A stretch of 64,000 nucleotides of DNA from Cystobasidiopsis lactophilus (Eukaryota; Basidiomycota; Agaricostilbomycetes; Agaricostilbales; Chionosphaeraceae): positions 657,434-721,433 of the forward strand of contig BCIO01000004.1 in the NCBI GenBank assembly GCA_001599975.1, written 5' to 3'. The notes under the pieces are model-generated. The model was not told where the DNA came from. It made no database searches and saw only the letters and a program-made list of their open reading frames with translations. This document shows positions 7,605-53,143 of this stretch, in pieces (the first letter of the stretch is position 1; the number at the start of each line of letters is the position of its first letter). Made by a program: the position numbers and the translations under genes.

Positions 7605-7992
7605 CAAGCGAAGCCCACTCTTAGCCCGGACAACTGGGCGCGAACCAGCAAAGCACAAGCAGACGGAGCGGCGGTCACAAGCAAGCAACATGAACATCGA
7701 GTGCAGGACGGCAGGCAAATCAAAGGTCTGAGGCCATCAGAGGGCGAGCGGCTGTGGCTGCCTCCGGGCCATTCTATTATTGGCGTTTGGCATGCGTCCT
7801 AGTGTCTCCGACGGCGCCTTTGTACATCCAAGCAGCAAGTAGTCACGGAGCAGGTCCAGGAGAGCCAGCGTCGCCTCCACGACGGGGCCGCGGCGCGCCC
7901 GATCGCCGAACTCCACGCAAGATGCCGCCACTCTTCATTTGCGAATTTTGGAGCGTCTATCGTGGCATGCAGTAGTGTACACAGTCGGTGAT
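7605..7992. other. Intergenic spacer between paralogues B and C
   Basis: About 390 bp between the start of paralogue B and the stop of paralogue C. It is expected to carry the promoter of B. Nothing else is recognised. Confidence 0.45.
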
Positions 7993-10042
7993 CTAGGCGG
8001 TCCAGTCGAGGAACAAGGGGAAATCGTCACTCAGCCCAAACAGAGTCCGTTCTCTTTCCTCTTCTCCCGCTCGCCATATCTCGGCCGCCGTCTCGTTCGT
8101 GGCAAAGAACTGGAAGATCCCTATGAGGCTTGGTGACGGTCAGGAGGTATTTCGGGACGCACCTCGACAGAATTCCAGAGCAGTCCTGCAACATGCCTGG
8201 TTGAGCCGTCCGATTGGTCTTGGAGCCTTTCCACTCGTCGATTCGTTACCTGAGTAGTGACTGTACTTTGACGAGCGCAGTCCCTAGGGCCTGAAAAAAC
8301 GTGAGCTGGCTTGCGCCTAAAGAAGCAAGGCAGATAAAACGCACTGCCTGCAAGAAACACCTCTGCCGCCTTCAAAATCTCCCTCTCCACGATCCCAACT
8401 ACGCCGACATCCATGTCTGCCATCTTCACGCGACTGTTGAGCGCCGAGCCTTCTTCCAATTCCCTCTCAAGATAAGTCAAGCGAAGATCTCCCATCGAGC
8501 CTATTGGGACAGTCAGCACAAAGTACCCCAAGTGTAGTGAGGGCGACTGAAGGTCTTACCTGATTCAAAGGCATCCAATACTCGCCGCATGGCTTCATGA
8601 TTGTCTGGAGCAAGGTGAAAGGTGCTGGAGTGCCCGTTGGACGCTTTTATTCCCTTCGCCAAGGATCCAATGGGATAGTCGCTGGCCAAGTAGACGGTGG
8701 TCAAAGAAGGAAAGTGGCGGTGGAGAAGGCGAAGCTGGTCGAGCAACGCATCAGCACACGCCGGAAGCGACGATATTTTCGGCGTGATGGTCTCCATGCG
8801 CCAATGGATTCCGATGTAGCTTGTCATCGATTCTGATATACTCTGTGCTAGTTCTGACCATAGAGAGGCGTACTTCGGGTGAAAATACGGTTTGATGGCT
8901 GAGGAGTCGATGCGAGGCGGGTGGAAGCGGGTGGCGGCCTGGTCTAGGGTGTCGTGCAGTATGATGTCGGCACGTTGCTCACACTTGACAACCAGCACAT
9001 CCGGGGTACCTGAGAGGCCGGGAGTCCGGGTTGCGGCGACCAGCACAGAAGGCGTTCGGAGTGTGTCGATGATGAAAGCACCGTGCCGCATTCGCAACTG
9101 GGGATCCATTGTGTAGTTCATCGGCGGCTGTTTGCGGCTAAATCAGTGCTGCCATTGCCCTACAGAAAAAGCGCCCACCAAGAAAACGATAGGGCTGAAG
9201 TCCTCGAAGCGAAGATAGCTGTAGGGCTCTTGAATGCAAAAGGTCGTCTGCTGGCCGGGAAAGCTGTCTGGAGGTTCTTGAGAGTAGATTCGATAGGCCC
9301 CATTGTCCGCCGCTACTTGGTGGCGGGTCAGCTCGACGGTTTGGGCTGAAGGGGCCGGCTCGCGTGAGTTGATCCACTTGAAGAGATCTGTATTCGATGT
9401 TCAGTTGCCGCCAGCGGTTGAAATAGGGGGCCTGGAAAAACGAACCGTCCTGTAACACCGTTGAGAACCCCATAGTCGACATAGCGTCCTTCTGGTAGTA
9501 AAACGACCAAGGGTTGTTGAGGCAACTTCCGAGGCGGGAGCTCGACGCGTGCGGCAAGATGAGGGTGCGATTTAGGGAGTGGGCAAGTAGACCAAGCATG
9601 TAGAGATGAATTGCCTGTTCAGATGACCTGTCAACTTGTTGCTCAGCGCAAACAGGTTTTGATGAGGACGCACCGCTCTCGATTCTTGCTCTGGAATCAC
9701 TGCCGGAAGTAGGAACTTGCAGTTGCCATTCGGACAGAATTGGCTATCCGCTTGAGCAGCAGGAAGTCGAGGGCGAGTTGCGTCGAGCGCTGGCATCGTG
9801 AGGTGCTTCATCGGCTGCATGAAGTCCAGGTCCTCCTCGGACCCCGTCGCTGGTGTAGGGCTGGCTGCCGAACGGCGGAGAAGCGCAACTATCAGCGCGA
9901 GAGAAATGATAGCGGACAGGCTGGAAGCAAGGAGGCGCCGGCGTCGCCGATGGCGACGGCGCTGGCGGTCGCGAAGTTCGAGCATGTCGGGCTCCTCAGC
10001 GGAGGCACGCGCTGGTAGAGAAGTGTACTCCACATCTGGCAT
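7993..10042 (-). CDS. O-fucosyltransferase-like type II membrane protein, paralogue C
   Basis: Starts at ATG 10042 (MPDVEYTSLPARASAEEPD) and ends at TAG 7993-7995. The cytosolic tail is very basic (RQRRRHRRRRR), followed by a membrane anchor (LLASSLSAIISLALIVALL) and a shorter stalk than in A. The lumenal region has FCPNGNCKFLLP, HSLNRTLILPHAS, IGIHWRMETI (about 8794-8821) and YLASDYPIGSL. The final exon ends FGLSDDFPLFLDWTA, matching the FGL-DF(P/A)L ending of the other copies. The His-Trp-Arg motif is kept in all three copies, so all could be active. The copies differ most in the stalk and in the segment after the His-Trp-Arg motif. Confidence 0.72.
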
Positions 10043-10651
10043 GCAGGTCTGGTGGGTTCACGAAGAAGAGAAAGGCAGGTTGAGCGAGCGAGCCGTCCCA
10101 GCGAGTGGCAGGCAGCGCGACAAGAGGAAAAGGGCGATCGCAAATGCCTGGAAGCCTCCAGATGTTGCTCTGCAGCAAACGTGACTTGAAGGTTTAGGGC
10201 AGCACGCAGCACAGATGGAAAAGGGGAGGTTCGTGCATCGAAGCTCCCGCCGCACAACTTGCAGCCTTGGACGGGTGGCTTAGCAATGGCCAGAGGAAGG
10301 GTCGAACATCATTTCAAAGTTGCCACAGTGCAAAATGTAGCATGCAAGATTCATCAAATGGTTCCAAGGGATAAAGGTTGCTGGCCGGCTCCGCGGCGGC
10401 GAAAACTTTTCTGGGTGGCAAAAGTGTCAGTGCCGCTCGTTAGGCCCAACTTGAGATACCTATTGCAGAATTGAAGCCCGTGATACAACATGCGTGATGA
10501 CAAGGATACAAGAGTTGCAGGAAGAAAACAGTCTGAACCAGGCTCTGCTTATGAGCCTCTAATACTGATGCGGCAAGATGCGACGTGCGAGTGGAGACAG
10601 GGAGTGGAAGAGACAGAATGGAACCATTTGAAAGAGAGCGGCGAGTGGGAA
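10043..10651. other. Intergenic region, about 0.6 kb
   Basis: Lies upstream of paralogue C and downstream of the next minus-strand gene. It presumably holds the promoter of C. No coding sequence with family features was seen. Confidence 0.4.
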
Positions 10652-12374: not shown

Positions 12375-12810
12375 TCCTCCAACAAATTTGAATCAATGAG
12401 CTCAAAAAGACGCGTTCTGACTCTGATGGGCTTCGCCCACAACGGGGAAGGAGCCGCAAGCCGGTCAGTCGCACACGCCACCGAGCCCATGACGAGGACA
12501 CACTCCACTGCGCGTGAGTTGTGAGGCGCGCGACTCAGCAGAAGCTGGATTCGGGACGTCTATGAGCAAAGAAAATGCGAATTGGGTTGCAAGTGTGATT
12601 TTGAACCTTTTGGGTCGTAGATAGCGCTCGCTCTTTCACCCGACTGCCAGCTCTTGTTATTTGAGGGCTGGCATGACTATACCAAAGCGATGAATATCCG
12701 GAAGAGTGGATCGAGAGTCGAAAAGGGTGTAGCGCTGAGCGATTGGCGAAGGCTAGAGAAAGGCACGCTGAGTGGCAAAAGTGGCGGCTAACCGACAAAG
12801 CCGTTGAAGT

Positions 12811-13420
12811 GGATTTCGATACCATGAGTGCCAGATAGGACACAAATTTGCTCTAGGACCGTGTAGAAGACCTGCAAAACCCAGAGATTGCGCATAATCG
12901 GAACAAGAACTTAGGATGCGACTGGCTCGGGTTCTGCTCGCGAGAGCTAACCGGGTCGTCGGGTGTTTTTATGTACGGCCGATTCTCACTACCTTCCTAG
13001 TGAGTCCAACAATGCGTAATGACCGACTGTCGCCTTCGCCAAAGACTTCCTTTCGCTTTTTTTTTTTGTTGGCTTGGACTCGTTCAGCAAGGCTCCTTTG
13101 ATCTCAGAAAATGACCGCTGGATTCGGATACCATGAGTGCCAGATGAGACACAAAAGTGCTAGAACACCACGTAGAAGACCCGCAAGGACGAGGAATTGT
13201 GCATAAATCGGACAAAATCTGGTTGTGGCGATCACTTGGGACCAGCTCGCCAGAGCTAACCAAGTCGTTGACGCTTCGTAGTACGGCCGATTCTCACTAC
13301 CTTCCTAGTGAATCCGACAATGTGCAATAACCGACTGTCGCCTTCGCCAAAGACTTCCCTTTCGCTTTTTTTTTGTTGGCTTGGACTCGACTCCTTGGAT
13401 CACAGAAAATGACCGTTGGG
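12811..13420. repeat. Two direct tandem copies of a ~300-bp repeat
   Basis: Copy 1 (about 12811-13111) and copy 2 (about 13112-13420) share ATACCATGAGTGCCAGAT at the left. They also share GATTCTCACTACCTTCCTAG, CGACTGTCGCCTTCGCC, an AAAGACTTCC/T-run block with TTGGCTTGGACTCG, and CAGAAAATGACCG at the right. The poly-T tract length differs between copies. No coding frame is kept across both, so this looks like a non-coding duplication. Confidence 0.85.
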
Positions 13421-28319: not shown

Positions 28320-31300
28320 ATGCTGCCGGAGACCGGCCGACTGGCGACTCTAGCAGCCAGGAATGCCAGGCGCGAGTCGCAGCCTGTTGAACCGCATGAC
28401 CTGGAGCGGCTGTCCGATGGGAATGGCCTGCACCTCGTTTCTGCCGCTGTGGAGCGGCCTATAGTCGCGGAGTAAGCTAGGTCCGCGCACTGGGCGCTGT
28501 CGAGGCTCAGGCCGGCGACCGCAGTGTGATTTTTGTGCATGGGATATCGGGAGACGCGACATCGACTTGGACCCACCCAGGTCTGTTCCCTCCTCTCATA
28601 TTACCTATAGACCTCTCTCAAAATGACAAGAGCATAGACACCGGGGTGTTCTGGCCCAAGGACTTGCTCGCGCCCGCCTTCCTCGCGCTGCGAATCTACA
28701 CCTTCGGCTACACCACCAGCTTGAACTCGTTCTTTGGCAGCGAGAATCTAAACCTCATTCGCAATCATGCTGAGAACTTGCTGGAAGCTGTGGCGAGTCG
28801 AGAGGTCGAGGTGCGTGCTCTTTTTCCCCTCGTTTTGGGAACTGTGCTGACCTTTCGCGGCCGACAGGATCTAAGTCGACCCATCATCTTTGTCGCCCAC
28901 AGCTTGGGGGGTCTGTTGGTCAAAGAGGTGCGCCTTGTCTTCTTACGCCTGTAAGACCTTGCTCATGCCTGGAGGCAGGCACTGGTCCGCGCTCGAACTC
29001 AGACCAAGCTGGAGTACCTGCGACCTGTTTTGGCCAACACCAGAGGGATCATCTTCATGGGCACGCCTCATCGTGGAGCGGACCAAGCCGCATGGCAATC
29101 GCTGGTTCGCAACTTTGCCTCCCTTGCCTCCAGCGCAGAGACGCCGGCCTTGCTTCGGCAGCTGGAAAAGGGCAGTGAAGCCCTCATGGCCCTCTCCACC
29201 TACTTCGTCCCGTGCTACGAAGAGTTCAAGCCCATGCTCCATTGCTTTTACGAGGCCCGCACGACGAAGGGCATGCAACACAAGGTCCGTCAAAGGGGAT
29301 GACTACGTGCTGTCCGTCCACTCATCAAAACACGCAGATTGTCGAGGAGGATTCCGCCAGGCACGGTTTTGCGGAAGAAAGCTCGGGCTCCATCGATGCC
29401 GACCATCTCGGGATGTGCAAGTTCTCGGCTCAAGGGGATGCGGGCTTCAAGGCTGTGCAGGGCGTTTTCACTCGCTGGATCAAGTGCCTTCGAGGTTAGC
29501 CACGTTTTCGTCTCTCGAATAACGCTGATGACTCGCAACAGAACCGCTTTCTTACCTTCCCGCTCGTCGACCAATCTTCGGGCGCGACCAAGATGTTTCA
29601 GCAACTGTTCAAGCGCTTCTTGCTTCCGGATCCATTCTCATCACGGGAGTCGGTGGGCTGGGCAAGACGTCTGTGGCAGAAGCTGCGCTCCACGACACCA
29701 AAGTCCAGCAGCGGTTCCTGCACCGTCGGCATTTCCTGTATTGCCAACAAATCGACCCCACCGCACTCCTGGACCCGGGCGAAAGGTTGGCCCACGCCAT
29801 CCTGCGATGCTTCGACTCCAAGAACATGTTCGTTGCGGCCGACCAAAGTCCAACCGCAAGAGCTGCCCAAATTGTTGGCGAGATCCGGCGAATAGTCGGC
29901 AACTTCCACCGCGTCCTCGTGCTGGACAACTTCGAAACCATCTGGTCTTCCTCTTCGTCTGCGGCTGAATCGGTCATCCGCCAGCTTTGCGAGATTCCGA
30001 CTTTGGCTGTCATCATCACCAGCCGCCAGGTCTTCAAACAGCGCGGCCTGCAGCATCTTATTCTCGACCCAGTATCAGCTGGATCGAGCCAGCTTGTCTT
30101 CTCTCACCATTATGACGAACGCGCCGTCACCTCGGAGGAGCAACCTATTCTTGACCTGCTCTTGGACTCGAAGCACATGGCTGGGCACTGTCTTTCAATC
30201 GCGCTCTTGGCTCGTGTCGCTCTTAACTCGATTTCAGCGACTCCCATCTCGGAGACCTACAACGACTGGAAAAAGACGCGCTCGCAGTTGCTGGCAGACG
30301 GCACAGCGGAGAACGCCCTCAGCAGCTTGCGGGTGTCGATCGAGTTGTCCCTCACAAGCGCCTTTGTCACCCAAGAAGAAGGAGCCCTGCCACTGCTCAC
30401 TCTCCTCGCTCATCTCCCTGCTGGCTTCCCTTCAAGTCCTATCGACGACATCAAGTCCCTCATTCCAGACCGGCCAAGAGCTGTCAATGTCCTACAATCC
30501 GCTTCCTTGATTGTTTGCCGGGACGATCGGTTCTCCTTGCTGCCACCCATCGCAGAACACCTTCGCGAGGCCTATCCTTTCCCCTCGCCGTCAACTACGA
30601 TCTCCCTTTGTCGTTTCTATTTGGAGTTGTTCAGCAAGCCCCTCTCACCACCGATTCCCGACGCTGCAAACATGGAGATCGTCGTCAAATTCTGGCTCCT
30701 TTGTGCAGACGCTGGTGTGGCAGGTCTGGAAGAGCTGCAGTCTTTTGCAAAGCATCTTCGACGCTCCGCCTTCGATCTGTACTCGGAAGGCTACCTCAGC
30801 AACGAGCTGCTCGAGATAGCCTCTGCCAGAGTGGCTCTCAGATTTGGGATGTGGGAGAGGAATAGGAGGAATGACAACAGAGCTGTCGATCTCACTCGAG
30901 AACTGGCAGTAGCTGAAGAGGAGCTGGCCATCTACCAAGGACAGCTAGGGCAGCACACACAGGCTTTCGAAACTACACAACGTGCTGGTCAGCGACAGCA
31001 GCTTCTTTTCAACCAAAACCCTTCGGCCTATCGCGAGGATCTGGCGGGCTCGCTCAACAACCTCTCCAACCGCTTGGGCGATGTTGGGCGCCACTCCGAG
31101 GCTTTGACCGCTATCGAGCAAGCGACCGATCATTGGCAGCTTCTTTTCAAAGAGCACTCTTCGGCCTACCGCAAGGCTCTGGCGGCCTCGCTCGACAACC
31201 TCTCCACCCGCTTGGCCGAGGTTGGCCGCCACTCAGAGGCTTTGAACGTTATCGAGCAAGCGGTGGAGCATCGACAGCTTCTTTTCAACGAGCACCCTTC

Positions 31301-32076
31301 GGCCTACCGCAAGGATCTGGCTCTCTCGCTCAACAACCTCTCCAACCGCTTGGCCGAGGTTGGCCGCCACTCCGAGGCTTTGACCTCTATCGAGCAAGCG
31401 ATGGAGCATTGGGAGCTTCTGTTCAAACAGCACCCCTCACGCAAGGATCGGGCGTACTCGCTCAACAACCTCTCCAACTGCTTGGCCGATGTTGGGCGCC
31501 CCTCCGAAGCTCTGACCGCAATGGAGCAAGCGGTGGAGTATCGGCAGCTTCTTTTCAATGAGCACCCTTCGGCCTACCGCAAGGACTTGGCGCAATCACT
31601 GTACAACCTTTCAATCACCTTGTCAAACGCCGGGCGTCATCCTGAAGCGCTGGAGGCTGTCTCTCAAGCGGTGCATCATCGACAGTTGCTGTTTGAAGAG
31701 CTTCCTTTCGCCTACCGCAAAGATCTGGCCGATGCTCTCTTCCAATTGGTCTACATACAAGAAAGGATGGACCCTTCTACGATCTCTCTCTCTCGTCGGC
31801 TCAGCAGGCTCTGAAACTATACGAAGAGCTGCAAAAGGAAACAGGTGGCTTTGAGGAAAATTTGGCATGGCTTGTAAAGATCATTGCTGCTGCCATTGTG
31901 AGTCCCTCCTTTTCCGATGACACTCGTGCCATAGACTCAATTTGCTTCAGGGCCAGAGTTCTGGCTCGAATGAGACTGAAGATGTGCAAAACGAGGATCC
32001 AGAGGAGGACCGAGCTGGCGTTCGTCAGAGCCAGGCTTCGGCACAACCCGGGGTGGCAAACGGAAATCTCTCATGA
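28320..32076 (+). CDS. NLR/STAND receptor: SesB-type hydrolase, NB-ARC, TPR repeats
   Basis: Fungal NOD-like receptor architecture. The proposed start ATG 28320 (MLPETGRLATLAARNARRES) leads via an uncertain small intron to an alpha/beta hydrolase: VIFVHGISGDATSTWTHPG, nucleophile motif FVAHSLGGLLVKE (about 28890-28927), GIIFMGTPHRGAD, and the His region DADHLGMCKFSAQGD. Then comes an NB-ARC-type NTPase with P-loop ITGVGGLGKTSVAEAALHD (about 29640-29695), Walker B HRVLVLDNFETIW, sensor-like AVIITSRQ, and HCLSIALLARVAL in the GLPL position. From 30999 there are six TPR-type units of about 46 residues. After the last unit the frame closes at 31814. A 56-nt intron (31749-31804) or a one-base slip in a CT run would continue it through QALKLYEELQKETGGFEENL to a stop at 32076. 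Likely role: non-self or heterokaryon recognition and regulated cell death (known for the class, inferred here). Confidence 0.85.
30999..31806 (+). repeat. Six tandem 46-residue TPR-type units inside the NLR-like gene
   Basis: Units begin at 30999, 31137, 31275, 31413, 31545 and 31683. The spacing is 138 bp except for one 132-bp unit, which lacks two residues. The core is LLFNEHPSAYRKDLALSLNN followed by LSNRLAEVGRHSEALTSIEQ. Units 2-5 are alike at the DNA level as well, while the last is diverging. Such homogenised repeats are typical of receptor arrays that change by unequal exchange. Confidence 0.9.
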
Positions 32077-33217: not shown

Positions 33218-33759
33218 GTTCGCCGACTTGCTCTTGCCACTCGGGCGCCCAGACCGGCTATCATCTGCATCATTGGCCGACTGATAACCCGCAACCTAAT
33301 CAAGGTCAATATCAGAGCTCAACGTCAGGGCTTGGTTTCACGCAGCAATACTCGAGTTTGCGAAAGTTCAATCGACGCACGCATCGCTCTGGAATCTTTT
33401 CTCAAGTAAGGCTTGCCCTACTCCCTATCAGATGAGCTACTACTGATTCTGTTGATTTGGCCGCGCAGATTCAGCTCTCGTGAAATTCGCACCGCGAGCG
33501 CCACCCGTCCGAATTGCAGCCCTCAAAAGCCCAAAGTTGGACCTTGGATCCCAATCGATCTCGACCTCATCCCCATCGTTTCCTCTTATGACTCTATGTA
33601 CAATGGCGGAAAGGCCGGCTTTGTCTCTCGCCTTTGAACAACAAGAAGCAGGGTGTTTGAACCTAAAAAATTTCGTGCACGGTCCTGCTCTCCCCTTCCG
33701 AAATTGCTGTGCCTCTGCGAAGTGGCTCTTGATCTTGAACAACGAAGAGTTGAGTGACC
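33218..33759. other. Intergenic region upstream of the tandem small-gene array
   Basis: About 540 bp with no supported gene. Contains the presumed promoter of the first array copy. Confidence 0.4.
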
Positions 33760-34874
33760 ATGGTGCGTTTGGCGGCTCCTTGCAGCAAAATGCAATTTGC
33801 TGACCGCTGCCTTCGAAGCACAGCCCTTCACACCAGAGGCGACCAAGATCACGCTCGAGTCGAAGGACGGCGGGGAGGACGAGGACAAGATCCGGCTGCC
33901 GTACGACGTCGACTACGCGGGCCGCCTGTTCAAGGAGCGGCCGACCGACCTGCTGGCCTTGGCGGACGGGACGGCGCGCCCGACTTTTGCGCTGACCGAC
34001 CCGCGGGGCAAGGTCGTCTACCAAGCCACCACCGCCGGCAACGTGCTCACCATCGAAAAGGTCGGCGTCGGCGCGGTCGGCAACGCGAATTGGAACCCGG
34101 CCAAGCTGGAGAAGAGCCAGATCTCCCTGCCGACTGGCGCTTCTTCCAATGGCACCCGCTTGACAGGCTCGTTGAAGGAGCTCATGGGCAGAGGGCTCCT
34201 CACTGCGTGCGTCTTGATCTCCTTGCTCTTGCCTGGTTGGGTCGGCTCATTTTGGGACGCGGTTGTCGAACAGAACCCGCACTTTAACACTGGGTGTGGA
34301 TAAGCTCAAGTGGAGCACGAGCTGCTACCAGTCCGGCTGTAGGTTTCTGCTACCTTTTGGTGTTCATCGAGACCTAAGTTTGGTTGCTCTGGATCTACAG
34401 CGGTGGAGGACGGCTTGTTCTTTGAGTTGCGTTTCGGTGGGAAGTCAGGTGCGCCCCTCATTCCTCTCCTACATTTGACTAGTCGGCTAGTCTCATTCGG
34501 AGGATGAGAGGACAGAGATCATAGCTACCACCCAAAGGCTCGCTCTGAAGGGCAAAGATGGGCCGCAAGCAGGTGCGACGTGGTTCTTCCCCCTTCTTCA
34601 ACGTTGCGTGCGCTGACGAGAGGTAATGCGCACAGACAAGTTCAACTCGTACCCTATCTGGATCAGCTCCAAAGGGCTTGGTGGGTTCTTCCTCTTCTTT
34701 CAGAGGACGTTCTCTTTCATCTAACACACTTCGCATTCGACAGCCTTACAAGATGTTCGTTCTCCTCTTTTCCCAAAAGCAAGGCCAGCCACTGACAACG
34801 TTGGAGCTCAGCTCATCGTCTGCAGTTTGCTGATCTGCGAACAAGCTCATACGCGGGGATTTGGCTCTGCTTGA
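33760..34874 (+). CDS. Tandem-array family protein, copy 1
   Basis: ATG 33760-33762 is followed at once by an intron (33763-33823, GTGCGT...GCACAG), then PFTPEATKITLESKDGGED. Conserved blocks of the array family are DYAGRLFKERPTD, GKVVYQATTAGNVLTIEKVG, QISLPTGASSNGTRLTGSLK, TLTLGVDKLKWSTSCYQSG, LFFELRFGGKS, IIATTQRLALKGKDG, KFNSYPIWISSKGLG and a C-terminus QLIVCSLLICEQAHTRG (TGA 34872-34874). About seven introns. The protein is small and probably beta-rich, with no signal peptide. The closing IVVT-LLCEQ strand and the GKVVY/FVIER pattern recall tubby-like DUF6593 proteins of basidiomycetes; this is a weak suggestion. All four copies lie on the plus strand. Confidence 0.72.
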
Positions 34875-35396
34875 TTCGGCCCGCCTTCAAGGACGCTTGA
34901 TGCATGTCGCGCCCGCCGGTCCTTTCTTTCCTTGTACCTTAGCCCATCCTCCACGGCCTACTCGCGCCTTTGAGAGGTGCTCCCTTGTATAACTGTCCTC
35001 GTCGACGCCTCCAAAGTTTAGCCGTGCCGAGGCGATCACGAATTTGGGCCCTTGACAAGCTTCTCTCTTTCGTGCGAGCATCTGCCTCAAATGTCGCAAT
35101 AGTCCTCTTTTGACGTTTCTTTAGAGCTGTAACCACCAAAGCCCCAGGACTGGCCAGCCAACGCACACCTTTGCGCAGCGCCGGCATCCTGTCAAATTAA
35201 AAAGAAACTCTCGGCTTCCACCTTCCTTCACGACCCTTCGCCAAGACCTCGGCAGCTGCCTCTGCTCCCTCTTAAACGACTTCCTTATCAGCAATCTCGA
35301 CTCGCGCCGAAAGCCCGGGGCAACTAGACTTAGAGCCACTCTCTCTCTTATCGATCATCAACTTTTCCAAACGCCCTAAAACTAGAAAGAAGAAGG
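34875..35396. other. Spacer between array copies 1 and 2
   Basis: About 520 bp. Holds the presumed promoter of copy 2, with a CT-rich stretch around 35330-35350 before its ATG. No other gene is supported. Confidence 0.4.
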
Positions 35397-36366
35397 ATGG
35401 TGTTCACCCCTCAGACCACCCACATCAGCCTTCAGTCCAAGGACGACGACGACGACCGGAAGAGCGCGCGGATCCACTTACCGGAAGGCGGGCCCTCCTA
35501 CGCCGTCCGTTTGTTCCGCAACCGCTCGCAGGACACGGGCAAAGGCACCTCCTTGTTCGAAGTGACCACCGTGTCTGGCAAAGTGGTCTACACCGCCCGC
35601 TCGAGTGCCGACGCCTTCGTGATTGAGCGTTCCGGGGAGGGAATGCAAGGGACCACGGCCGGCTCGGCGCTTTGGGACTCGACCAACCTCAACAAGTCTA
35701 CTATCAGCCTGCCTAGCTCTTCCTCTGGCAAAATCACCGGTCCTTTGAAGGACCTCCTTCCGAAGAGCTTCTTCCGCGGGTTAGTTTCTCTCTCCACCTG
35801 TCAGCCAGGTGGTGATCCTGACACCTGAGCGATCTCGTGTAGGGCTCGGACATTTACTATGGGCAGCGACAAGTTGAAGTGGACCAACACGTGCTACGAC
35901 CAAGCGAGTAAGTGCTTCTAGCACACTGACGATAGGCGCTTGGCTGACCGGACATTTGGCGCAGACCTGGCAGTCGACCAAATCTTCTACGAGCTGCGGT
36001 TCAAAGGCCGGTCAGAAGTCTTAGCCACCACAGAGCGCCTGGCTATGAAGAACATGGATGGATTCCCTCAAGGTGAGCCTTCGTGCTTTGATCGTTCAAG
36101 CCATGTTGCTCACTAGGCGTGGTTCGATAGACAAATTCGAGTCGTACCCAATCTGGATCTCCGCACAAGGTCTTGGTGGGTGTTCTTTTTGCTGGATGTC
36201 GAAAGGCGACATGTCTGATCGTTTGTTTTGCATTCCAGAATTCCTAGATGTGAGTTTCTTCCCAAGGACTAAGCCCCAGATCAAGGTCCTGATCCAGTTC
36301 CTCTTACAGCTCATCGTGGTCACTGCTCTACTGTGCGAGCAAGTCCACAACAGGCATTCAAGTTGA
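35397..36366 (+). CDS. Tandem-array family protein, copy 2 (start-codon intron absent)
   Basis: The clearest copy. ATG 35397 continues directly as MVFTPQTTHISLQSKDDDDD, so the start-codon intron of the other copies is missing. Then come SYAVRLFRNRSQD, LFEVTTVSGKVVYTARSSAD, FVIERSGEG, STISLPSSSSGKITGPLKDL, an intron from about 35780, ARTFTMGSDKLKWTNTCYDQ, FYELRFKGRSEVLATTERLA, KFESYPIWISAQGL, and a last exon LIVVTALLCEQVHNRHSS ending at TGA 36364-36366. About five introns with good GT/AG borders. Same family and unknown function as its neighbours. Confidence 0.78.
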
Positions 36367-37102
36367 ACAAGCGCGGATCTTGTGGTTTCAAGGAGGGGGA
36401 TTTTTTCAACAATGCCAGGCGCATTCCGAGTGTGTATATGGTGTCCTTTAGTCTTTTGCAAGCGACCTAGAGTAATTTCAGCCTTCTTATTGAAGTTCTT
36501 GTCGGCGTAGACCTGAAGCTGCTGCTCGATGACGGCCGCCACCGCCCCGCGCGAACTTTGAGCAGCTTTTGCCACCCTTTTGCGTTTCGAGGCTTGCCAG
36601 ACCTGCCTCCTAAGTGTCCTTCGCTTGTGCTCCTTGCGTCTGGTTTCTACGAGAGCTCGCTAGGCGCGCCCTGTTAGACTTTTGCGCCTCCGAGGGCTCC
36701 GCTCTCGCAATGTCACCGCGGCTGTCAGCTGGTGATCCGTCAAACGGTCCCTTGGCGGTTTCAGCGTGTCGTTTTGACACCCAGACAAGCCAACAATTGT
36801 TTGCGATCTCTGACCAGTGAAAGGTCTGGCAGCTGGTTGTGCCGATCATGGGGCTTTCAGCAGAATGATTTGACGCATTTCAGGCTTGCTTCTGGGTGTC
36901 TGGTCGATGGCTCTCAGCTCTGAGTGTTGGCGATCAACGAGAAAGGGGCCCGAACAAACTGGTCCAGCCAGGAGATGCACGGACTCTCAGGCCGCCTACC
37001 CAACTTGGACCCCTTTCAAGCACGAGCGCGCTGTTTTGGGTCGCATAGCCGCTGGAGCGTGTGCACAGTTTCTTCTTCGCCATCGACCAAGGTGTCCTTC
37101 TC
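36367..37102. other. Spacer between array copies 2 and 3
   Basis: About 740 bp without a supported gene. A minus-strand open frame near 36410-36575 has plausible sequence but no start context or domain. Presumed promoter of copy 3. Confidence 0.4.
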
Positions 37103-38218
37103 ATGGTGTGAGCCATCGATCGTATCTATTCAGCCTCCCACTGATGGCCTCCTAGTTTCACTCCCGACGCGACGTTAGTGAGCCTTCAATCCAAGGAGGA
37201 CAGTGCACGGCAAAGCATCGTCCTACCGTGAGTTGCTCCTTGGTCTGTGTCTTTGCTTAGGACTAGCCTCAATCCGGATGCAGCGAAGGTGTAGAATATG
37301 CCAAACGACTCTTTCGGCAAGTTCCCGCTCCTCACCACCCTTTGTCTAGGTTCCGTCCTCCGAACTGACGAGCCGCTACTGCAGCCACAAGACCGTCTAC
37401 CTCGACGAACGGTCCTCCATCTTTGAGCTGACAAGTCTATCACGCAAGGTCTTGTACACGGTGAGCTGGGCGCCTCTCCTTGCCTTGCTGCCAGAATGAA
37501 GCTCATATCAATGTTATGATCATCAGGCTCGCACGTCTGGCGATGTCTTCACCATCTCACGCACTGACCACGGCGAGATCGGAGGGGCGGTGTGGAACAC
37601 GTCCAAGCTGGACAAGTCGGCCATCACGCTCCCGGCTTCCGGGGCAAGCAGTGGCCGGATCACAGGTCTGCTCAGAGATCTGTTGGCGAAGAGCTTCTTT
37701 AAAAGGTGCGCACAAATATGAGACGATGGTCTATCTACTCCATGGCTTGGCTGACGGTGGACCAGCACGAGAACCTTCGAGATCGGGTCCCAGAAACTAC
37801 AGTGGTCCCAATCATGCTACGACATGTCAGACCTCGAAGCATCAAATCTCTTCTGCACTTTGCGGTTCAAAGGGGAGACCAGCGAGCTGGCGACCACTGA
37901 AAGGCTTGCACTTGGCAAACAGGACGGATCGCCTTACGGTAGGTCTACGATGCTTCCTCCTTGGATCTTGCCTCACCCTTTGTGAGAATAGACAGATTCA
38001 CCAGCTATCCGCTCTATGTCGCGCAGTCTGCGTTGCGTGAGTGCCACCCGATTTGCCACGGTCAATGTGTTTGCTGAGACTGAAGAACGCCAGCTTATCT
38101 CGATGTACGCTCGTCCAAGTGAGACCTTTTATGGCTATCCACTGACTACTCAGGACAGATCATTGTTGTCACAATGCTGATTTGCGAGCAAGTGCACATC
38201 AAGACGCACGGCGGCTGA
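37103..38218 (+). CDS. Tandem-array family protein, copy 3
   Basis: ATG 37103 with an intron starting five bases in (ATGGT|GTGAGC, 37108-37155) joins TTCACTCCC to give MVFTPDATLVSLQSKED. Further exons read QSIVLP, EGVEYAKRLFRQ, KTVYLDERSSIFELTSLSRK, ARTSGDVFTISRTDHGEIGG, SAITLPASGASSGRITGLLR, TRTFEIGSQKLQWSQSCYDM, LFCTLRFKGETSELATTERL, RFTSYPLYVAQSALR and QIIVVTMLICEQVHIKTHGG (TGA 38216-38218). One intron near 37350 would be only about 35 nt. The segment between RLFRQ and the conserved SIFEL block is longer than in copies 1 and 2. All family blocks are present, so it is probably functional. Confidence 0.7.
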
Positions 38219-38765
38219 AGCTTTTCTCGCCATACTTCACTTCTATATGCGATAATTTGGGCTTTTGTAGACATCTATTATGTAATATACCAAGCATGGA
38301 TAGCATGGGCGCCTTACTACCCTCACTTGCGAGGTGGCGAAAATGACGGCTAGGCTCGCTCGTTGTCTGGCTTGCTTCCTCCCTCGGCCCTCTCTTTTTG
38401 TCCCTTTGAGATTTGTCCCTTTGAGAGATGCATTAGCGCTATCAGCTTTGTATGCCATCTATCTGCTTGAAGAAGTGCTGGCGAAGGGATGTTTTGCGGA
38501 GCCGCCACCCTCGTTTTGACCTGCGAATTGTTGGCCGCTGTTTGGCAGTCTGCTATCTGCTTCCTCAACAGCTTATCTTCTCTTCTAATTTGGTTGATGC
38601 TCGTGAAAATGACAAGTTGCAATGCCCCTATGTGACTAAAACACGGCCGAGCTGTTGCGACGAGCACAGACGCTAGAAGGCACGACGCAGTGCTGCCGGT
38701 TTCAAGCCAACCGCCTCGTGATGTCGTTTTTGCGGCTTGCACCTCAACGAGCAGCAGGACAGGAG
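38219..38765. other. Spacer between array copies 3 and 4
   Basis: About 550 bp. A short direct repeat (GTCCCTTTGAGA twice, near 38399-38425) is visible. No gene is supported. Confidence 0.4.
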
Positions 38766-40001
38766 ATGGTGAGCTGCCCAAGCCTGCCTGAATGCCAAAC
38801 GACCACGCTGATGTTTCCCTTAGCCATTCACGCCCCCTTCGTCCACTCGCGTCACCCTTGAATCCAAAAGCAGCGACGAGGATGGCGAGGGAGAGCGTTT
38901 CCGTCTGCCCAACACAGTCAACTTTGTGGCTCGCTTGTTCAGAGAGCGCACTGCCGAGACGCTCGACCTCCGGAACCCGCCCTCGAACCGGTCCAACTTT
39001 GTCCTCACAAGGTAATGTGAGGTCATTGATCCGAGGAGCTATTTCTGATCCGATGCTGGCGAGAGAAGCAATGGCAGTGTGATCTACACTTGTTCAGTGG
39101 ATGCCAACGTGTTCAAGGTCGAGAAGCATGGCAGAGAAGTCGGCGGCGCTATCTTCAACAGCTCAAAATGTAAGAAGCGGAAGTCTCTGCCTTTATTGCC
39201 AGGCTGATGGCTTGAGTCCTCCACAGTGGAGAAGAGTGTGGTTCGACTGCCGGACGCGTCAGGAAGCCTTGTCATCGGGACTTTAAAGGAGCTGCTCGGC
39301 AAAGCATTGATGAGCGAGTGCGTTCCACCTCTAACTCTGAATGCGTGTGCTTGGTCACTGAATGGCTGGCACCGGACAGGACCCGGACTTTTGTCCACGC
39401 CGACTCCAAGCTGAAGTGGACGTCGCATTGCTACAACGCTGGTTGTAAGCCGAGTCTCACTATAAGTCCACGGGTCCGGTGTGAAGATGTTGCCGCCTGC
39501 TTTCAGGGCCTGAGGACGGTCAATACCTCGAGTTGCGCACCAAAGACAAGGCAAGTGCGCGTGGCCTGGTGGATCGCTTGGTGGGTCGATGCTGAGGACA
39601 CGCGAGCAGAAGCAACCCATGGCCTCGACCGAAAGAGTCGAGCTCAAAGGCAAGGACGGAGTGGCGACCGACAAATGGACCAGGTAAATTAAAAACTCCC
39701 GCTGGTGGCGAATTTGGGCCCCCGGTGATGATCGGAGGCGCAGTTATCCCCTCTGGCTCAGCGAAGAGGCACTGGGTGAGTTCACCACATCTCGGAGACG
39801 ACTCCGAGGGACTAGTGGCAGAGTTGGCCGAGGCTGCCGAAATCTGGACTGATTTGCGCATTTATCTTTTGTTCAGGCTTCCAAGACGTGCGTATCTTTT
39901 TGGTTCGCGTCCGATTACGCCACTGAAAAGAGTGCTCTTGGCGCCACCAGCTCGTTGTGGTGACACTGCTGCTCTGTGAACAGATCCAAACTATCCGTTA
40001 G
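38766..40001 (+). CDS. Tandem-array family protein, copy 4
   Basis: ATG 38766-38768 is followed at once by an intron (GTGAGC...CCTTAG), as in copy 1, then PFTPPSSTRVTLESKSSDED. Conserved blocks: VNFVARLFRERTAETLDL, VIYTCSVDANVFKVEKHGRE, SVVRLPDASGSLVIGTLKEL, TRTFVHADSKLKWTSHCYNA, DGQYLELRTKDK, and ASTERVELKGKDGVATDKW with YPLWLSEEALG. The last exon reads LVVVTLLLCEQIQTIR (TAG 39999-40001). It shares the start-codon intron and PFTP start with copy 1, suggesting those two are closer to each other or keep the ancestral form. Some middle exon borders (near 39010-39090 and 39570-39600) are uncertain. Confidence 0.68.
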
Positions 40002-42812: not shown

Positions 42813-44479
42813 TTACCTGATTTCAGAGATGGCTTCCACCACATGCTCGCGCTCCATGTAACCTAGAATGGCTTCGATCTCGGAACTGTGAACACGAAAA
42901 GCAACGCGGCCAAACAAAAAGTCATTAAAAGGAGGGGCGGAACGAAAGATCGGCAAAACCAGAAGAACCCACCTTTTGTGGCCCTTGATGCGCTCAATCT
43001 CCTGCCAGTTGTAGTTCGCCAGCCCTCGGCCCACCTCCACAGTCTCCTCCTCGTCCCCGTCTAGGCTGAGTGCGGCCAAGTCCTCCACGCTGCTCTCGAT
43101 CGACCTCCCGCCCTCCTCCATCCCGTTGATCAATTTCCGCTTTTTCCGCCTGACCGCAATCCGCACGGCCTGGCCAGCCGCAAAGCTTCCTTCGACCTGC
43201 ACCACCCCCGCCGCCAAGAGCCGCCCGCCGTTCCCCTCGTGGTCCTCCGACGGCTTTTGGGAGGAGCGCTTCCTAAAGAGGGCCCGGTAGGCGCCCTCGT
43301 CAATGATCAACCTCCCCCGCGGCGCCAGGCCATGCAAGATCCACCACCTGCGGTCCGGCATGGGCGAGTCCATGGGCAAGAAGATGGTGTGCGGGGGTTC
43401 GCCCTCGGCTCGCGGGCTTTCGACCGAGGCCAGCTCGATAGGGGTGGAGGTGGAGGATGTACTGGATGATGGACAGGGGGAGGAGATGATGGGGAAGATG
43501 TTGTTGGGCTTAGAAGAGTGCATGATCACGGTCGCCACACCGGCGCCGGTGGCCAGTTCGGCGGCGATGAGCTTGGTTTCCATACCGCCTGTCCCGAGTG
43601 AGGAGCCTAGCGTCGCCGTGCTCACTGTGTGTTACGACAGAATCGAGACTTGAGTGACAAGTTACAGGGAAGGCGAAACAACACACCTCTCGCTCTGAGA
43701 GCCTCGATATCTCGCACCACCTTGACCTGCTGGGCGGTCGGACACCGCCTCGGGTTTTCCGTGTACAGACAATCCACGTCGGTCAGTAAAAACAGGTAGT
43801 CGGCCATGACCATGCCCGCTGTGATGGCAGACAAAGTGTCGTTGTCGCCAAACTTGATCTCTTGCACGGCGACCGTGTCGTTCTCGTTGACGATGGGGAT
43901 GACGCCCATGGCCAATAGCGATGTTAAGGTTTTAGTGGCGTTAATGTAGCGGGATCTCTGTCGATGCCTCCGAGGTCACAATCACAATTCAAGAGTCGAG
44001 GAGGGAGGCCAGCACGAACATCTGAAATGTCGTTTCTAGTCAAAAGGATCTGGGCGATTGGCTGGCCCAGTTCGCCAAACAGAGTGTCGTAGAGCGCAAT
44101 CAGCCTGCCTTGGCCAATGGCAGCGAGGGCCTGTGCTCGCAAGCACTCCGAGTCAACAATCATCGCCCACAAAAAAAGTCCTGCGAGCCCCCAAAGCCAA
44201 ACGCACCTGCTTGTCCGCCAGTGCCTTAGGTCTTTTACTGAGCTGCATCCGCTTGAGGCCCATCCCAATCGCCCCCGAGCTGACGAGCACGACCCGGTGG
44301 CCCGCCGCTCGGAGGGAGACGATGGCTTCCGCTATTGAGGACAGGACGCTCAGCTGCGGCTGCAAGGTCGACTCGGACACGATGCTGGAAGTGCCGAGCT
44401 TGACGACGATCGTCAGGCTGGACGACGAGTCCGTCCGCCGAGGGTTCCTCATTGCTGCTGCGTGGTCGCTTGGCCTCAC
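42813..44479 (-). CDS. PRO1: Glutamate 5-kinase (proline biosynthesis)
   Basis: ATP:glutamate 5-phosphotransferase, first step of proline synthesis. ATG 44479 ([20 protein letters not shown]) leads to the amino-acid-kinase core: [98 protein letters not shown], and [20 protein letters not shown]. The C-terminal PUA-type region has [20 protein letters not shown] and [20 protein letters not shown], ending VEAISEIR at 42813. Ser/Thr/Pro and acidic inserts lie between and inside these domains (for example near 43440-43480 and 43050-43130), making it longer than bacterial PUA-bearing kinases. About five introns. It is head-to-head with the arrestin gene, 214 bp apart. Confidence 0.92.
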
Positions 44480-49087: not shown

Positions 49088-52000
49088 CTACAAAAAGCCC
49101 TGTTTCCTCCAGTAGCTCAGCCACTTGAGGCAGTCGCCAGCGTCAAGCGGCCTGATTTCCGCTAAAGCCTTGGACAAGCTCTGCGCCTTTGTTGTCGACA
49201 GGGTGAGAGGAGTAGCTTTGGCAGTTGCCGCTGAGGCCTTGGCAGTGAAGTAAGCTTGCAGTTTGATCGCCGGATTCTTGGTGGCGTCCGTCTCGCCTCC
49301 GAGGTGTTGGAGCCAATGCTGCCAGTCTGCCAATGGGATCTTCAGTTCGGTGGCAATAGAAGACAGGAGTGTCTCCCAAGGCACAGGGTGGGGGTGGACG
49401 AGATGGAGGATTGGCGGAGGAGACGACTGGCTGAATTGGAAGATGGCTCGTGCAGCGACGTCGACTGGTAGCCAATTCACGTCCTGATTTTTCAGGGTCA
49501 GTCACGTTTGAAATCTCTGGATGATTGAGATATCACACCTCTGCAGGGCTGGGCAAGCATTGTGTGCTTTGGGCCGACTTGACCAGCAGCGGGAACCAAT
49601 CCGTCGTATTCCACGCTCCGTTCTTAGTCGAGCCACACAGTTGACCAATTCGGACGCTTGTGCTCTTCAAAGCAGTTTGAGCAGATGCTGCCTCCAGTAT
49701 GCGTTCGCCGACGTGCTTTGACCTGCCATAGCCCAGAGGCGACGCCAAACAGGTTGATGTCGGCTCTTCTGGCACAGGTGCTCCAGGCGTATATTGGCCA
49801 ACCGAGCTGACAGAAGAAGTATTGATGTAGAGGGGAGGCTCTTGAAACGGCGAGGCAAGGGCGAAGTCGACCAGCGCACGTAGCCCTTTGATGTTGGACT
49901 CGAATGACGGCAGCGACAAGTTGAAGTCCAAACGCCATGCGTTGTGGATGATGCATGTTATCGACTGTTGGATTTTTGCGAACAATTCCGGGTCGACGCC
50001 AAACCCGGGCTGGCCCACGTCACCTTCGACCAGTACGACCTTGCCGCTGTGCAGAATGGCGGGGTCTATTCCTCGGTCGGTCAGTGCGGTGGTCTGTCGA
50101 TCCAAAAGTGATGCGTTCGCAGCCGGGCGGTTGAGGGCGTAGATAGTCGTTGTGGCTGGATCAGATGCGAAGAAGTCCAGTAAGTAGCTGCCCAAAGTAC
50201 CGGTGGTGCCAGTGATCAGAATGGTGCGCTTGCTTGGGCGAGACGAGCTGCCCTTATGAGCGGGGAAGTCAGCTGTGTACTTCTGAATCATGGCGTTGAC
50301 TTGTTGCAGAGCGGCTTGGGGATCGTCGGCCTTGGCCACTCCGGACGTCTGGTCGAAGATGTACTGCGAGAGGGCCACCACAGTGGGATGTTGATACACA
50401 AAATTTGCAGGCAACTTGGGTGCGGCGCCACTCTTCCGCAAGGCTGCAATAAGCTTCTGGCGAATGAAAGTAGCTTGCAAGCTGTTTGCCGATTTCGTCA
50501 GTACGGACTTGGAAACAGGATTGCTTGCTCACCTGTCGCATCCTTGCTCAAACAGATCTCTTTCAGGGTTGATGCTGCCGCCATCTGGACGCACGATCCG
50601 ATGCACAAGCTCAGAAACGTATGTCGAGGTGGCGTCCGCGGTCCACTCTGCGGGAACTTCGCCGTCTGGGCTGGAAGCTTGTTCGACCGTCTCGTACAGT
50701 TGATCGATTTCGTCTATCTCTAGCATCAGGCCAGGTTTGTGGGCCGACGAGCGTGGCCTGCTCACCGTTGTAAAGGTCCAGAGTCTTAGGTCGAGCGACC
50801 GAACCTTTAGTGGTATAGAACATTGGCTTAGACGCTGAGGTGACCAGAATCATTTCTACCTTGGGCATCAGCATTCGAAGAAGGGCTACCGGATGAACCT
50901 TACGCACCTTTATAAACGCGACTATGAGAAGGCGCGAAGTCATTGGCTTGGACAACTTTGGGCCTGATGACTTGTCGTTAGACGAGATTCAAAGCGAAAG
51001 GAAGCACAGGGCTGCCTACCAGATGAGGTTTCGGAAAGCTATCAGTTGTCCTTCGTCTGACGGGTCGATGGCATGATTAGGTGAAGGTTCAATCAAGATG
51101 CCGTTTTGAAAACGACTACGACCAAAGTAGATGCAGGACTTGACGTAGGGGGAGGCTCGGATGATGAGTTCCAGAGGGTTGGGACTGGAGAAGTGTTCAG
51201 CGAGGGCCGGCAGAAAACAAGACGAGGTGACTTACTTCGTCTTCTCGCCAGTCGACAGCATGATTTGATCGTCCACTCTTCCCACAATCTTGATAAGACC
51301 GGGCCGGGTTGGGTGCTTCGCCACCAAGTCGTTGGTGCGGTAGGTGTTGGTGGCTGGGTCTGCCAGAGCCAGGGTGTGCGTGGGCGTTCCCCTCAACACA
51401 AGCTCGTACACCTTTCCTTCGTCGTCTTGCGGCTCAAAAATGGGAGACGTCTTTGAGACCGCCGATTTAGCCAGGTTTTTCCCGTCCGCAAGTCAAACGC
51501 TCACGTTAGCCTGCAGTTCGATCCAGTCCCAATCCAGCCCGTATGGCCTCTCAGCCACAGTCACCGTGACAGGTCCAATCTCCGTACTGCCCCATCCCTG
51601 GTAGAGACCGACGCCCTCTGAAGCCAAGAAATCGCCAACAGCTTTCGGCAGCGGTCCGCCACTGTTTCGCGCCCAGTCGAAGGTCTTCAGAATCTTGATC
51701 GCTTCTTCATCTTGAGACCAGGCCACAAAGTGAGACGGCGGGGAGATGACATGCGTGGCGCCGCTTTCCTTCCACGATTTGAGCACACTTTCTGGCGTAG
51801 GAATTACTGGAGGTTCTTGAGGTGGGAAAGCCACCACAGAGGCGCCAGTACTTGATGGAACTCCCTGTGCTCGATTGGGCCCAGGCTCGGTACGGTCTGA
51901 GAGGGTAGTGCTCACGATGCATTGGAAGAAGCCTGAAGCGTGGAATGGCGGAACAGCCTGCAGGCCAAGCACGTGGTTGCACATATCTTGATAACCATAC

Positions 52001-52740: not shown

Positions 52741-53143
52741 GATTCTGGGATAGAGAGCAAGGAGAACAGAGCCATTTTTGGCACGGCAAAGCAAAGTGCA
52801 CGCTCCCAAGCGGTGGCCAATTCAGTGCGGGGTGACAATCTTCGGCAGCCTGTGCCGAGCGCGCTTGATGAGCTTGAACGAGAGGGCGCAAGGAGCGAAA
52901 GCATTTTGGATAGGCAACAGAGTGAGTCGAAGAAGTTGTGGCAAAGGGGCAAGCTGTTCGATCGAAAAGTTCGTGATGCAATGCAAACAAGGGTATGAAA
53001 GCCAAAATGCAACGATGTGTTAGAAGAAGAGGTGGTGTGAGGGTGGCGAGGTGAAGAGGGACATGGTGAATGTGGTGGTAGTACAAGTTTATTTATTTAG
53101 TCGTTGGGCGCCCGGCGTGAGGAATGAGCTGGCGATTAATTGA
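52741..53143. other. Intergenic region upstream of the adenylating reductase
   Basis: About 400 bp between the reductase start and the transporter stop, both minus. Presumed promoter of the reductase. No gene is supported. Confidence 0.4.

What the first reader, a model, noticed from the sequence alone, without database searches (positions are those of the whole stretch)
28320..32076. Complete fungal NLR: SesB-type hydrolase + NB-ARC + TPR
Hydrolase triad regions (AHSLGG nucleophile, MGTPHRGAD, DHLGMCKF), P-loop GVGGLGKTS, Walker B VLVLDNFE and TPR array are present in the classical order. In other fungi this class controls non-self recognition and cell death. Basidiomycete members are little studied. 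The neighbouring lineage-specific array makes this region a good candidate for an allorecognition locus.
Basis: partly seen in the sequence, partly recalled or inferred. Interest (0 to 1): 0.75.

Follow-up and report, generated by a model that had tools for sequence, protein, structure and literature searches.

The report
Fungal immune-receptor-like gene, end broken
This stretch of fungal DNA holds a gene for an intracellular immune-receptor-like protein (a lipase-like enzyme, a nucleotide switch and a repeat-built sensor), which is a known kind of gene, but its last repeat is interrupted by a reading-frame break and its switch is not of the type first named.

Summary
One + strand gene starts at ATG 28320; six GT-AG introns of 47-57 nt lead into a large exon. 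It encodes a SesB-type alpha/beta hydrolase, a STAND NTPase and a TPR array. The NTPase exon has no in-frame ATG before its P-loop, so hydrolase and NTPase look like one gene.

Three corrections. (1) The NTPase is not NB-ARC by Pfam: nSTAND1 39.1 bits (cut-off 27.1), NB-ARC 14.8 (cut-off 23.5), NACHT not listed. (2) The gene is not complete as read: the frame changes inside the last TPR (about 31760-31795); the frame in use stops at 31814. (3) The "lineage-specific array" is DUF6593-like (one copy tested), with nothing found tying it to allorecognition.

The hydrolase aligns with bacterial ones; Ser, Glu and His are shared by 6 of 6. Differences between repeats include all five positions recalled as the TPR binding face (small numbers). 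Best reading: a new member of a known kind, a hydrolase-effector STAND receptor. Allorecognition is untested. The fungal lineage could not be determined.

The parts
28320..28471 (+). exon 1: start codon and N-terminal segment, ends after the second base of a codon
   Evidence: ATG 28320; donor GTAAGC; joins in frame to exon 2 to give ...PIVADVIFVHGISGD. Predicted, no transcript.
28472..28524 (+). intron 1, 53 nt
   Evidence: GTAAGC...CGCAG; in frame, the strongest donor among several in-frame choices
28525..28580 (+). exon 2: hydrolase start, VIFVHG strand
28638..28810 (+). exon 3: hydrolase
   Evidence: introns 28581-28637 and 28811-28867, 57 nt each, GT-AG
28868..28927 (+). exon 4: hydrolase nucleophile HSLGG (Ser codon 28901-28903)
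   Evidence: Ser shared by 6 of 6 aligned
28979..29284 (+). exon 5: hydrolase; GTPHRG 29060-29077; probable catalytic Glu codon 29252-29254 (CFYEAR)
   Evidence: Glu shared by 6 of 6 aligned; Asp of GAD by 3 of 6
29338..29494 (+). exon 6: hydrolase end; catalytic His codon 29404-29406 (DADHLGMCK)
   Evidence: His shared by 6 of 6; reading through the next intron stops at 29497
29495..29541 (+). intron 6, 47 nt, joins hydrolase and NTPase in frame
   Evidence: GTTAGC...CAACAG
29542..31814 (+). exon 7: STAND NTPase, linker helices and TPR array; ends at TGA in the frame in use
   Evidence: Pfam nSTAND1, TPR_10, TPR_12; first in-frame ATG at 29826, after the P-loop
29646..29672 (+). Walker A GVGGLGKTS
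29913..29936 (+). Walker B VLVLDNFE
   Evidence: neither D followed by an acidic residue (NB-ARC) nor D[GAS]hDE (NACHT), as described in PMC12258605
30996..31679 (+). five TPR units (46, 46, 46, 44, 46 aa)
   Evidence: TRF 30998-31592, period 138, 4.4 copies, 82%; unit alignment; confident helices in the model
31680..31814 (+). sixth TPR unit, cut short in the frame in use; frame change between about 31760 and 31795
   Evidence: codon log-odds switch frame at about 31770; five-unit register
31815..31897 (+). tail in the second frame (rest of last TPR and C-terminal segment)
   Evidence: open in frame mod 3 = 2; codon scores weak here
31898..31950 (+). intron of the tail, 53 nt
   Evidence: GTGAGT...TTCAG
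31951..32076 (+). last tail exon, rich in acidic residues, stop 32074-32076
33758..40000 (+). neighbouring array of four DUF6593-like genes (about 33.76, 35.40, 37.15 and 38.82 kb); context, not part of the receptor
   Evidence: one copy, spliced by hand, scores DUF6593 27.9 bits, cut-off 27.0; the others assigned by similarity to each other; ends approximate

Best explanation
A fungal NLR-type receptor gene. Shown from sequence: one gene encodes an N-terminal SesB-like alpha/beta hydrolase with a conserved Ser-Glu-His set, a central STAND NTPase closest to Pfam nSTAND1, and a kinesin-light-chain-type TPR array grown by unit duplication. Inferred: at rest the NTPase holds nucleotide and the TPR superhelix keeps the hydrolase apart; binding of a ligand (non-self protein, or a host protein altered by an invader) to the concave TPR face leads to nucleotide exchange and oligomerisation; the clustered hydrolases then cleave lipids or esters and damage or kill the cell. 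Also inferred: repeat duplication and changes at binding-face positions retune what is bound. In this sequence the last TPR and C-terminal tail are cut off by a frame change, so this copy may be truncated, or the sequence may carry an error there.
For: Domain order and scores. One gene: in-frame 47-nt intron, no ATG before the P-loop in the NTPase exon. Hydrolase relatives on bacterial plasmids: of 27 records matched I fetched 5; among them Nostoc hydrolase-AAA_35, Gloeothece hydrolase-WD40 annotated as an NB-ARC protein (its NTPase is by annotation; Pfam showed 25 of 75 families, all repeat-type), Undibacterium hydrolase-TPR, and a Rhizobium ABC-3C system protein, 35.4% identical. Ser, Glu, His the same in 6 of 6. 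PADLOC candidate-defence model DUF626_VIII matches the hydrolase at 7e-9. The TPR part matches bacterial TPR proteins at 35-46% in the 25 listed of 88 plasmid records, 64 of the 88 from Streptomyces; the Nocardia one also has an nSTAND domain. The TPR part is modelled with block pLDDT 69-92, and the best target-normalised TM-scores among the 50 PDB rows listed are BtubC (0.82) and kinesin light chain (up to 0.73). Repeat differences include 5 of 5 recalled binding-face positions against 8 of 25 others. A P. anserina sesB-like/NB-ARC/TPR gene shows repeat-number polymorphism and selected concave sites (PMC4986451 section 17).
Against: Frame break in the last TPR. Repeats 57-78% identical, below the 85% mark. 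dN/dS between repeats is mixed, 0.20-1.27, above 1 in only 2 of 10 pairs. The NTPase was not modelled with confidence (block pLDDT 23-50, single sequence). By E-value the top PDB matches are other TPR proteins (TTC7B, OGT, LGN) with large rmsd. The P of the GxP motif reads C (AGHCLSIAL; motif recalled). No transcript, no isolate and no fungal relative could be examined.
Confidence: 0.72

Rival explanations
1. The locus is a decaying NLR: the frame change is real and fixed, and the protein made (1058 aa) lacks half of the last TPR and the tail.
For: The first frame scores best up to 31769, the second in 31770-31829. TGA at 31814. A good intron and an open second-frame tail follow, as expected of a formerly continuous gene. 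The stretch contains a CT dinucleotide run, a likely slippage site (visible in the printout).
Against: A single break near the 3' end; roughly 93% of the apparent full length, with all catalytic motifs, is open. It may be a sequencing or assembly error. A repeat array can lose its end and still work. Codon scores are modest, and in one bin (31830-31859) the first frame scores above the second (-1.0 against -2.6).
Confidence: 0.4
2. The frame is restored by a further 56-nt intron (31749-31804), so the gene is complete to 32076.
For: GT...CAG borders give an open frame to 32076; other introns here are 47-57 nt.
Against: Weak donor (GTCTAC). Codon scores stay positive inside the proposed intron, first in one frame then in the other. 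Splicing would remove about 18 residues of the last TPR, whereas the unspliced reading keeps the TPR register.
Confidence: 0.15
3. An allorecognition (heterokaryon incompatibility) gene together with the neighbouring array.
For: Ascomycete NLRs with TPRs control incompatibility (plp-1, PMC12881547 passages). Repeat differences include the recalled binding-face positions.
Against: [quoted passage not shown] The array is DUF6593-like with no link found. No polymorphism data.
Confidence: 0.15
4. A housekeeping lipase-TPR protein (lipid remodelling or trafficking) that is not an immune receptor.
For: The hydrolase belongs to the wide DUF676 class; the TPRs are KLC-like.
Against: A STAND NTPase between hydrolase and repeats, with a bacterial hydrolase-NTPase relative, is the receptor pattern; the array is fairly recently duplicated.
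Confidence: 0.1

Closest known systems
[quoted passage not shown] PMC4986451 section 17)
   Same: Hydrolase, NTPase and TPR in the same order; TPRs modelled there on a kinesin light chain, the type matched here; duplicated repeats; variable positions on the concave face (there measured, here inferred)
   Different: NB-ARC there, nSTAND1-like here; repeats here 46 aa rather than the usual 42 (PMC4986451 section 13) and below 85% identity; frame break here. No sequence of that gene was compared.
Neurospora crassa PLP-1 (patatin/NB-ARC/TPR; PMC12881547 passages)
   Same: Lipase-type effector plus STAND plus TPR; works like it in outline
   Different: Patatin rather than SesB-type effector; NB-ARC; function demonstrated there, not here
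Cyanobacterial plasmid proteins with the same hydrolase (Gloeothece L001, Nostoc L003)
   Same: N-terminal hydrolase with the same Ser-Glu-His set, joined to an NTPase: AAA_35 by Pfam in Nostoc, NB-ARC by annotation in Gloeothece
   Different: WD40 (Gloeothece) or no repeats (Nostoc) instead of TPR
Actinobacterial nSTAND-TPR_10 protein (Nocardia L006)
   Same: TPR part 38.7% identical over a 342-residue span of the query; nSTAND-type NTPase
   Different: nSTAND5 and a trypsin-like N-terminus (below cut-off) instead of a hydrolase; ten TPR_10 stretches
Bacterial ABC-three-component system protein (Rhizobium L004)
   Same: Same hydrolase domain, 35.4% identical
   Different: CTD9 instead of STAND and TPR

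Membership tests
Fungal SesB-like NLR | N-terminal SesB-like alpha/beta hydrolase (PMC4986451 merges SesB with Pfam alpha/beta hydrolases) | tested here: met
   Abhydrolase_6 32.8 bits (cut-off 26.3), DUF676 20.3 (cut-off 20.3); Ser, Glu, His 6 of 6
Fungal SesB-like NLR | match to the authors' own SesB profile | not testable with these tools
   profile not held
Fungal SesB-like NLR | central STAND NTPase | tested here: met
   nSTAND1 39.1 bits (cut-off 27.1); Walker A and B
Fungal SesB-like NLR | C-terminal superstructure-forming repeats | tested here: met
   TPR_10, TPR_12; array; confident helical model
Fungal SesB-like NLR | all parts in one gene | tested here: met
   in-frame intron 29495-29541; no in-frame ATG before the P-loop. 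By sequence only, no RNA
Fungal SesB-like NLR | unbroken reading frame to the end of the repeats | tested here: not met
   stop 31814 inside the last TPR; codon signal changes frame
NB-ARC | Pfam PF00931 at its curated cut-off | tested here: not met
   14.8 bits against 23.5, only residues 320-364
NB-ARC | Walker B with an acidic residue directly after the first Asp (PMC12258605) | tested here: not met
   VLVLDNFE: D followed by N
NACHT | Pfam NACHT match; Walker B D[GAS]hDE | tested here: not met
   no NACHT among the 21 families at E up to 0.1; D-N-F-E-T
nSTAND1 | Pfam PF20703 at its curated cut-off | tested here: met
   39.1 bits, profile positions 17-176 of 379, i.e. the P-loop half only
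Highly internally conserved NLR repeats (HiC) | over 85% identity over at least 100 aa (PMC4986451 section 13) | tested here: not met
   10 pairs of five units: 57-78% amino-acid identity
Allorecognition (het) locus | polymorphism between isolates and incompatibility phenotype | not testable with these tools
   single sequence, no genome held

The most novel reading that the evidence does not exclude
The gene belongs to a class of basidiomycete hydrolase-STAND-TPR receptors whose NTPase is nSTAND1-like, so that surveys baited with NACHT and NB-ARC miss it. If the fungus belongs to a lineage reported to lack NLRs (Pucciniomycotina or Tremellomycetes in PMC4986451, whose authors themselves allow that divergence may have hidden them), the reported absence is partly a detection gap, and fungal NLR-type immunity reaches deeper into Basidiomycota than stated.
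Probability: 0.25. Interest if true: 0.6.

Novelty: new member of a known kind. Interest (0 to 1): 0.38.

Why it matters
Published surveys say SesB-like effectors are almost missing from basidiomycete NLRs (PMC9815663) and that NLRs were not found in the earliest-branching Basidiomycota (PMC12258605) or in Pucciniomycotina and Tremellomycetes (PMC4986451). PMC9815663 and PMC4986451 delimited their proteins by NACHT and NB-ARC matches. This gene fails the Pfam NB-ARC and NACHT cut-offs yet has the full receptor layout, so it is a concrete bait for asking whether those absences are real; whether those surveys' own searches would have caught it was not tested. Its hydrolase is also clearly alignable with bacterial hydrolases of STAND and ABC-3C proteins, one more link between fungal and bacterial effectors.

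Tried and rejected
No whole genome is held, so paralogues and genome-wide NLR counts could not be obtained. Single-protein scans found no relative in viral contigs (1 pattern stretch, 0 confirmed) or genome contigs (18 stretches, 0 confirmed). PDB sequence search gave only kinesin light chains for exon 7 (14 sequences) and nothing convincing for the hydrolase or the NTPase part (best E 0.49 and 0.24). NCBIfam gave 7 families for exon 7, mostly TPR-type and all below their cut-offs, and none for the hydrolase. The AlphaFold model of exon 7 was made without relatives; only its TPR part is usable, so matches of the NTPase part (for example the STAND-TPR entry 6mfv, rmsd 30) are not counted. Rfam and tRNA scans of the window were empty (the tRNA tool uses the bacterial code).

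Considered and rejected: hydrolase and NTPase as two genes (no ATG before the P-loop; non-ATG starts not considered); intron 31749-31804 (see rivals); exon 2 starting at 28511 with a longer N-terminus, used and replaced after by the in-frame 28472-28524 intron; the Asp of GAD as the catalytic acid (3 of 6); strong positive selection on the repeats (omega above 1 in 2 of 10 pairs). Taxon: GC 56.4%, short introns, an AMP-binding plus NAD_binding_4 pair that looks like fungal LYS2 and DUF6593 point to a fungus, probably a basidiomycete (what these families imply is recalled); I could not place it further. M. lychnidis-dioicae has 55.4% GC (PMC4469406 passages), which proves nothing.

Papers: PMC4986451, passages and sections 13, 14, 17; PMC12258605, passages and section 12; PMC9815663, passages; PMC12881547, PMC10197012, PMC4469406, passages. 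Others only as search listings.
Full report
What is there. No whole genome is held for the window; short spliceosomal-type introns show it is eukaryotic. A + strand gene begins at ATG 28320. Its first six introns are 53, 57, 57, 51, 53 and 47 nt, all GT-AG, and join the exons in frame. The spliced reading in the first frame is 1058 aa to TGA 31814. Pfam finds, in order, an alpha/beta hydrolase (Abhydrolase_6 32.8 bits against 26.3; DUF676 20.3 against 20.3), a STAND NTPase (nSTAND1 39.1 against 27.1) and TPRs (TPR_10 71.2 against 27.5).

One gene, not two. Reading on from the last hydrolase exon stops at 29497, inside the 47-nt intron. The NTPase exon is open from 29532, but its first in-frame ATG is at 29826, after the P-loop at 29646-29672. 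An NTPase gene starting with ATG on its own would lack its Walker A motif. Retention of this intron would yield a stand-alone hydrolase.

The hydrolase. tblastn against plasmids found 27 records with a match, 7 of them covering at least 80% of the 301-aa query. I fetched five of the 27. By Pfam they are a Gloeothece hydrolase-WD40 protein, annotated as NB-ARC (25 of its 75 families were shown, none of them an NTPase); a Nostoc hydrolase-AAA_35 protein; an Undibacterium hydrolase-TPR protein; a Rhizobium ABC-three-component protein (CTD9); and a 1373-aa Enterobacter protein with only hydrolase-type matches. For two of the five (Gloeothece, Undibacterium) no hydrolase family reached its cut-off in the rows shown; the tblastn match carries them. 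Aligned with the window protein, the nucleophile Ser, a Glu in CFYEAR and the His of DADH are the same in 6 of 6, while the Asp of GTPHRGAD is shared by 3 of 6. The triad is therefore probably Ser 28901-28903, Glu 29252-29254 and His 29404-29406. PADLOC's DUF626_VIII model also matches (7e-9).

The NTPase. Pfam NB-ARC reaches 14.8 bits over 45 residues, below the 23.5 cut-off; NACHT is not among the 21 families listed at E up to 0.1; nSTAND1 passes, over the P-loop half of its profile. Walker B is VLVLDNFE: the residue after the first Asp is Asn, whereas PMC12258605 describes a directly following acidic residue for NB-ARC and D[GAS]hDE for NACHT (passage). I recall that LDNFE-type Walker B motifs are common in agaricomycete TPR proteins; no call tested that. 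The fold of this part could not be modelled (block pLDDT 23-50).

The TPRs. The array has a 138-nt period over 30998-31592 (82% matches). Five units are 57-78% identical in protein over the 10 pairs, and units 1-4 are 81-89% identical in DNA, so they arose by fairly recent duplication. The model is confident over the array (block pLDDT 69-92). By E-value the first PDB matches are various TPR proteins (TTC7B, OGT, LGN); the best target-normalised TM-scores among the 50 rows listed are BtubC 0.82 and kinesin light chain up to 0.73, the latter being the template type used for the Podospora gene in PMC4986451. Repeats fall short of the 85% HiC mark. Nei-Gojobori ratios between units run from 0.20 to 1.27, above 1 in 2 of 10 pairs, so no general positive selection is shown. 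When units 1-4 are put in canonical TPR numbering, the positions 2, 5, 9, 12 and 13, which I recall as the hypervariable binding-face positions, all differ (5 of 5) against 8 of the other 25 (one-sided Fisher p = 0.009). With unit 5 added it is 5 of 5 against 11 of 25 (p = 0.03); against the five non-consensus helix-A positions alone it is 1 of 5 (p = 0.02) and 2 of 5 (p = 0.08). The set was chosen after seeing the repeats and the numbers are small. A paper search for those positions returned 3 listings, none holding the phrase 'hypervariable positions'. The pattern agrees with, but does not prove, a retuned binding face as in PMC4986451 section 17.

The break. In 30-nt bins the first frame scores best up to 31769 (1.1, 4.5, 1.7); the second frame scores 5.4 and 2.2 in the next two bins, then -2.6, -1.1 and 1.6; in the -2.6 bin (31830-31859) the first frame was less negative (-1.0). 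The best single switch point is 31773, with near ties from 31761 to 31776. The first frame stops at 31814. A 56-nt intron at 31749-31804 could also join the frames, but its donor is weak, codon scores stay positive inside it, and it would cut the last TPR. So 'complete' holds only if an unlikely intron is used or the sequence is wrong there. Whether the break is natural cannot be told from one sequence.

Surroundings. Upstream lies a gene with a TFIID 18-kDa (TAF13-type) match (39 bits against 27). Downstream the 'lineage-specific array' is a set of four genes with many short introns. One copy, spliced to 222 aa, reaches the Pfam cut-off for DUF6593 (27.9 against 27.0); the other three were assigned by similarity only. 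Nothing found ties them to the receptor. No second NLR-like gene turned up among the window ORFs scanned, but those scans covered selected ORFs, not every frame.

How it most likely works. By family knowledge (STAND switches, SesB- and patatin-type effectors, TPR sensors) it is an intracellular receptor whose hydrolase is unleashed by ligand-driven oligomerisation. The parts are shown; the switch, ligand, substrate and outcome are inferred. [quoted passage not shown]

Novelty. The layout is known in ascomycetes (PMC4986451, PMC12258605). In basidiomycetes SesB-like N-termini are reported as almost missing (PMC9815663); PMC4986451 nevertheless lists one SesB-like NACHT-WD40 NLR from the basidiomycete Piriformospora indica. 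NLRs were not found in Pucciniomycotina and Tremellomycetes (PMC4986451, which itself allows that divergence may have hidden them) or in the earliest-branching Basidiomycota (PMC12258605). A table row in PMC4469406 gives NACHT counts of 0 to 2 for nine species outside Agaricomycetes and 44 in the Agaricomycetes column (passage with cut header). This protein falls below Pfam's NB-ARC and NACHT cut-offs, so such surveys could miss it. Because I could not place the fungus, this stays a conditional point. I file it as a new member of a known kind.

Noticed in passing
33758-40000 (+): Four tandem DUF6593-like genes with many short introns; one copy (222 aa as spliced by hand) passes the Pfam cut-off. 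Function unknown.
   Followed up: partly
2680-10060 (-): A gene in three tandem copies (similar ORF sets around 2.7-5.1, 5.4-7.7 and 8.0-10.1 kb; matched pieces 34-64% identical in protein); the four ORFs tested have no Pfam match above cut-off.
   Followed up: partly
59523-62908 (+): Two adjacent, slightly overlapping long ORFs (536 and 605 aa) that are 26% identical to each other over 439 columns and have no Pfam match at E up to 10.
   Followed up: partly
12810-13374: Direct repeat with a spacing of 308-309 nt in two copies: a 94-nt part at 89% and a 102-nt part at 75% identity, with a T-run.
   Followed up: partly
29495-29541: Retention of this intron would end the protein at 29497 and give a stand-alone hydrolase.
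   Followed up: partly
49536-52821 (-): AMP-binding and NAD_binding_4 ORFs that look like a fungal LYS2 gene; with the IPMS (55105-56250) and AA_kinase/PUA (42816-43975) ORFs useful for placing the fungus.
   Followed up: no
L004 3953-5152: The SesB-like hydrolase domain also occurs in a Rhizobium ABC-three-component system protein (CTD9), 35.4% identical to the fungal domain.
   Followed up: partly
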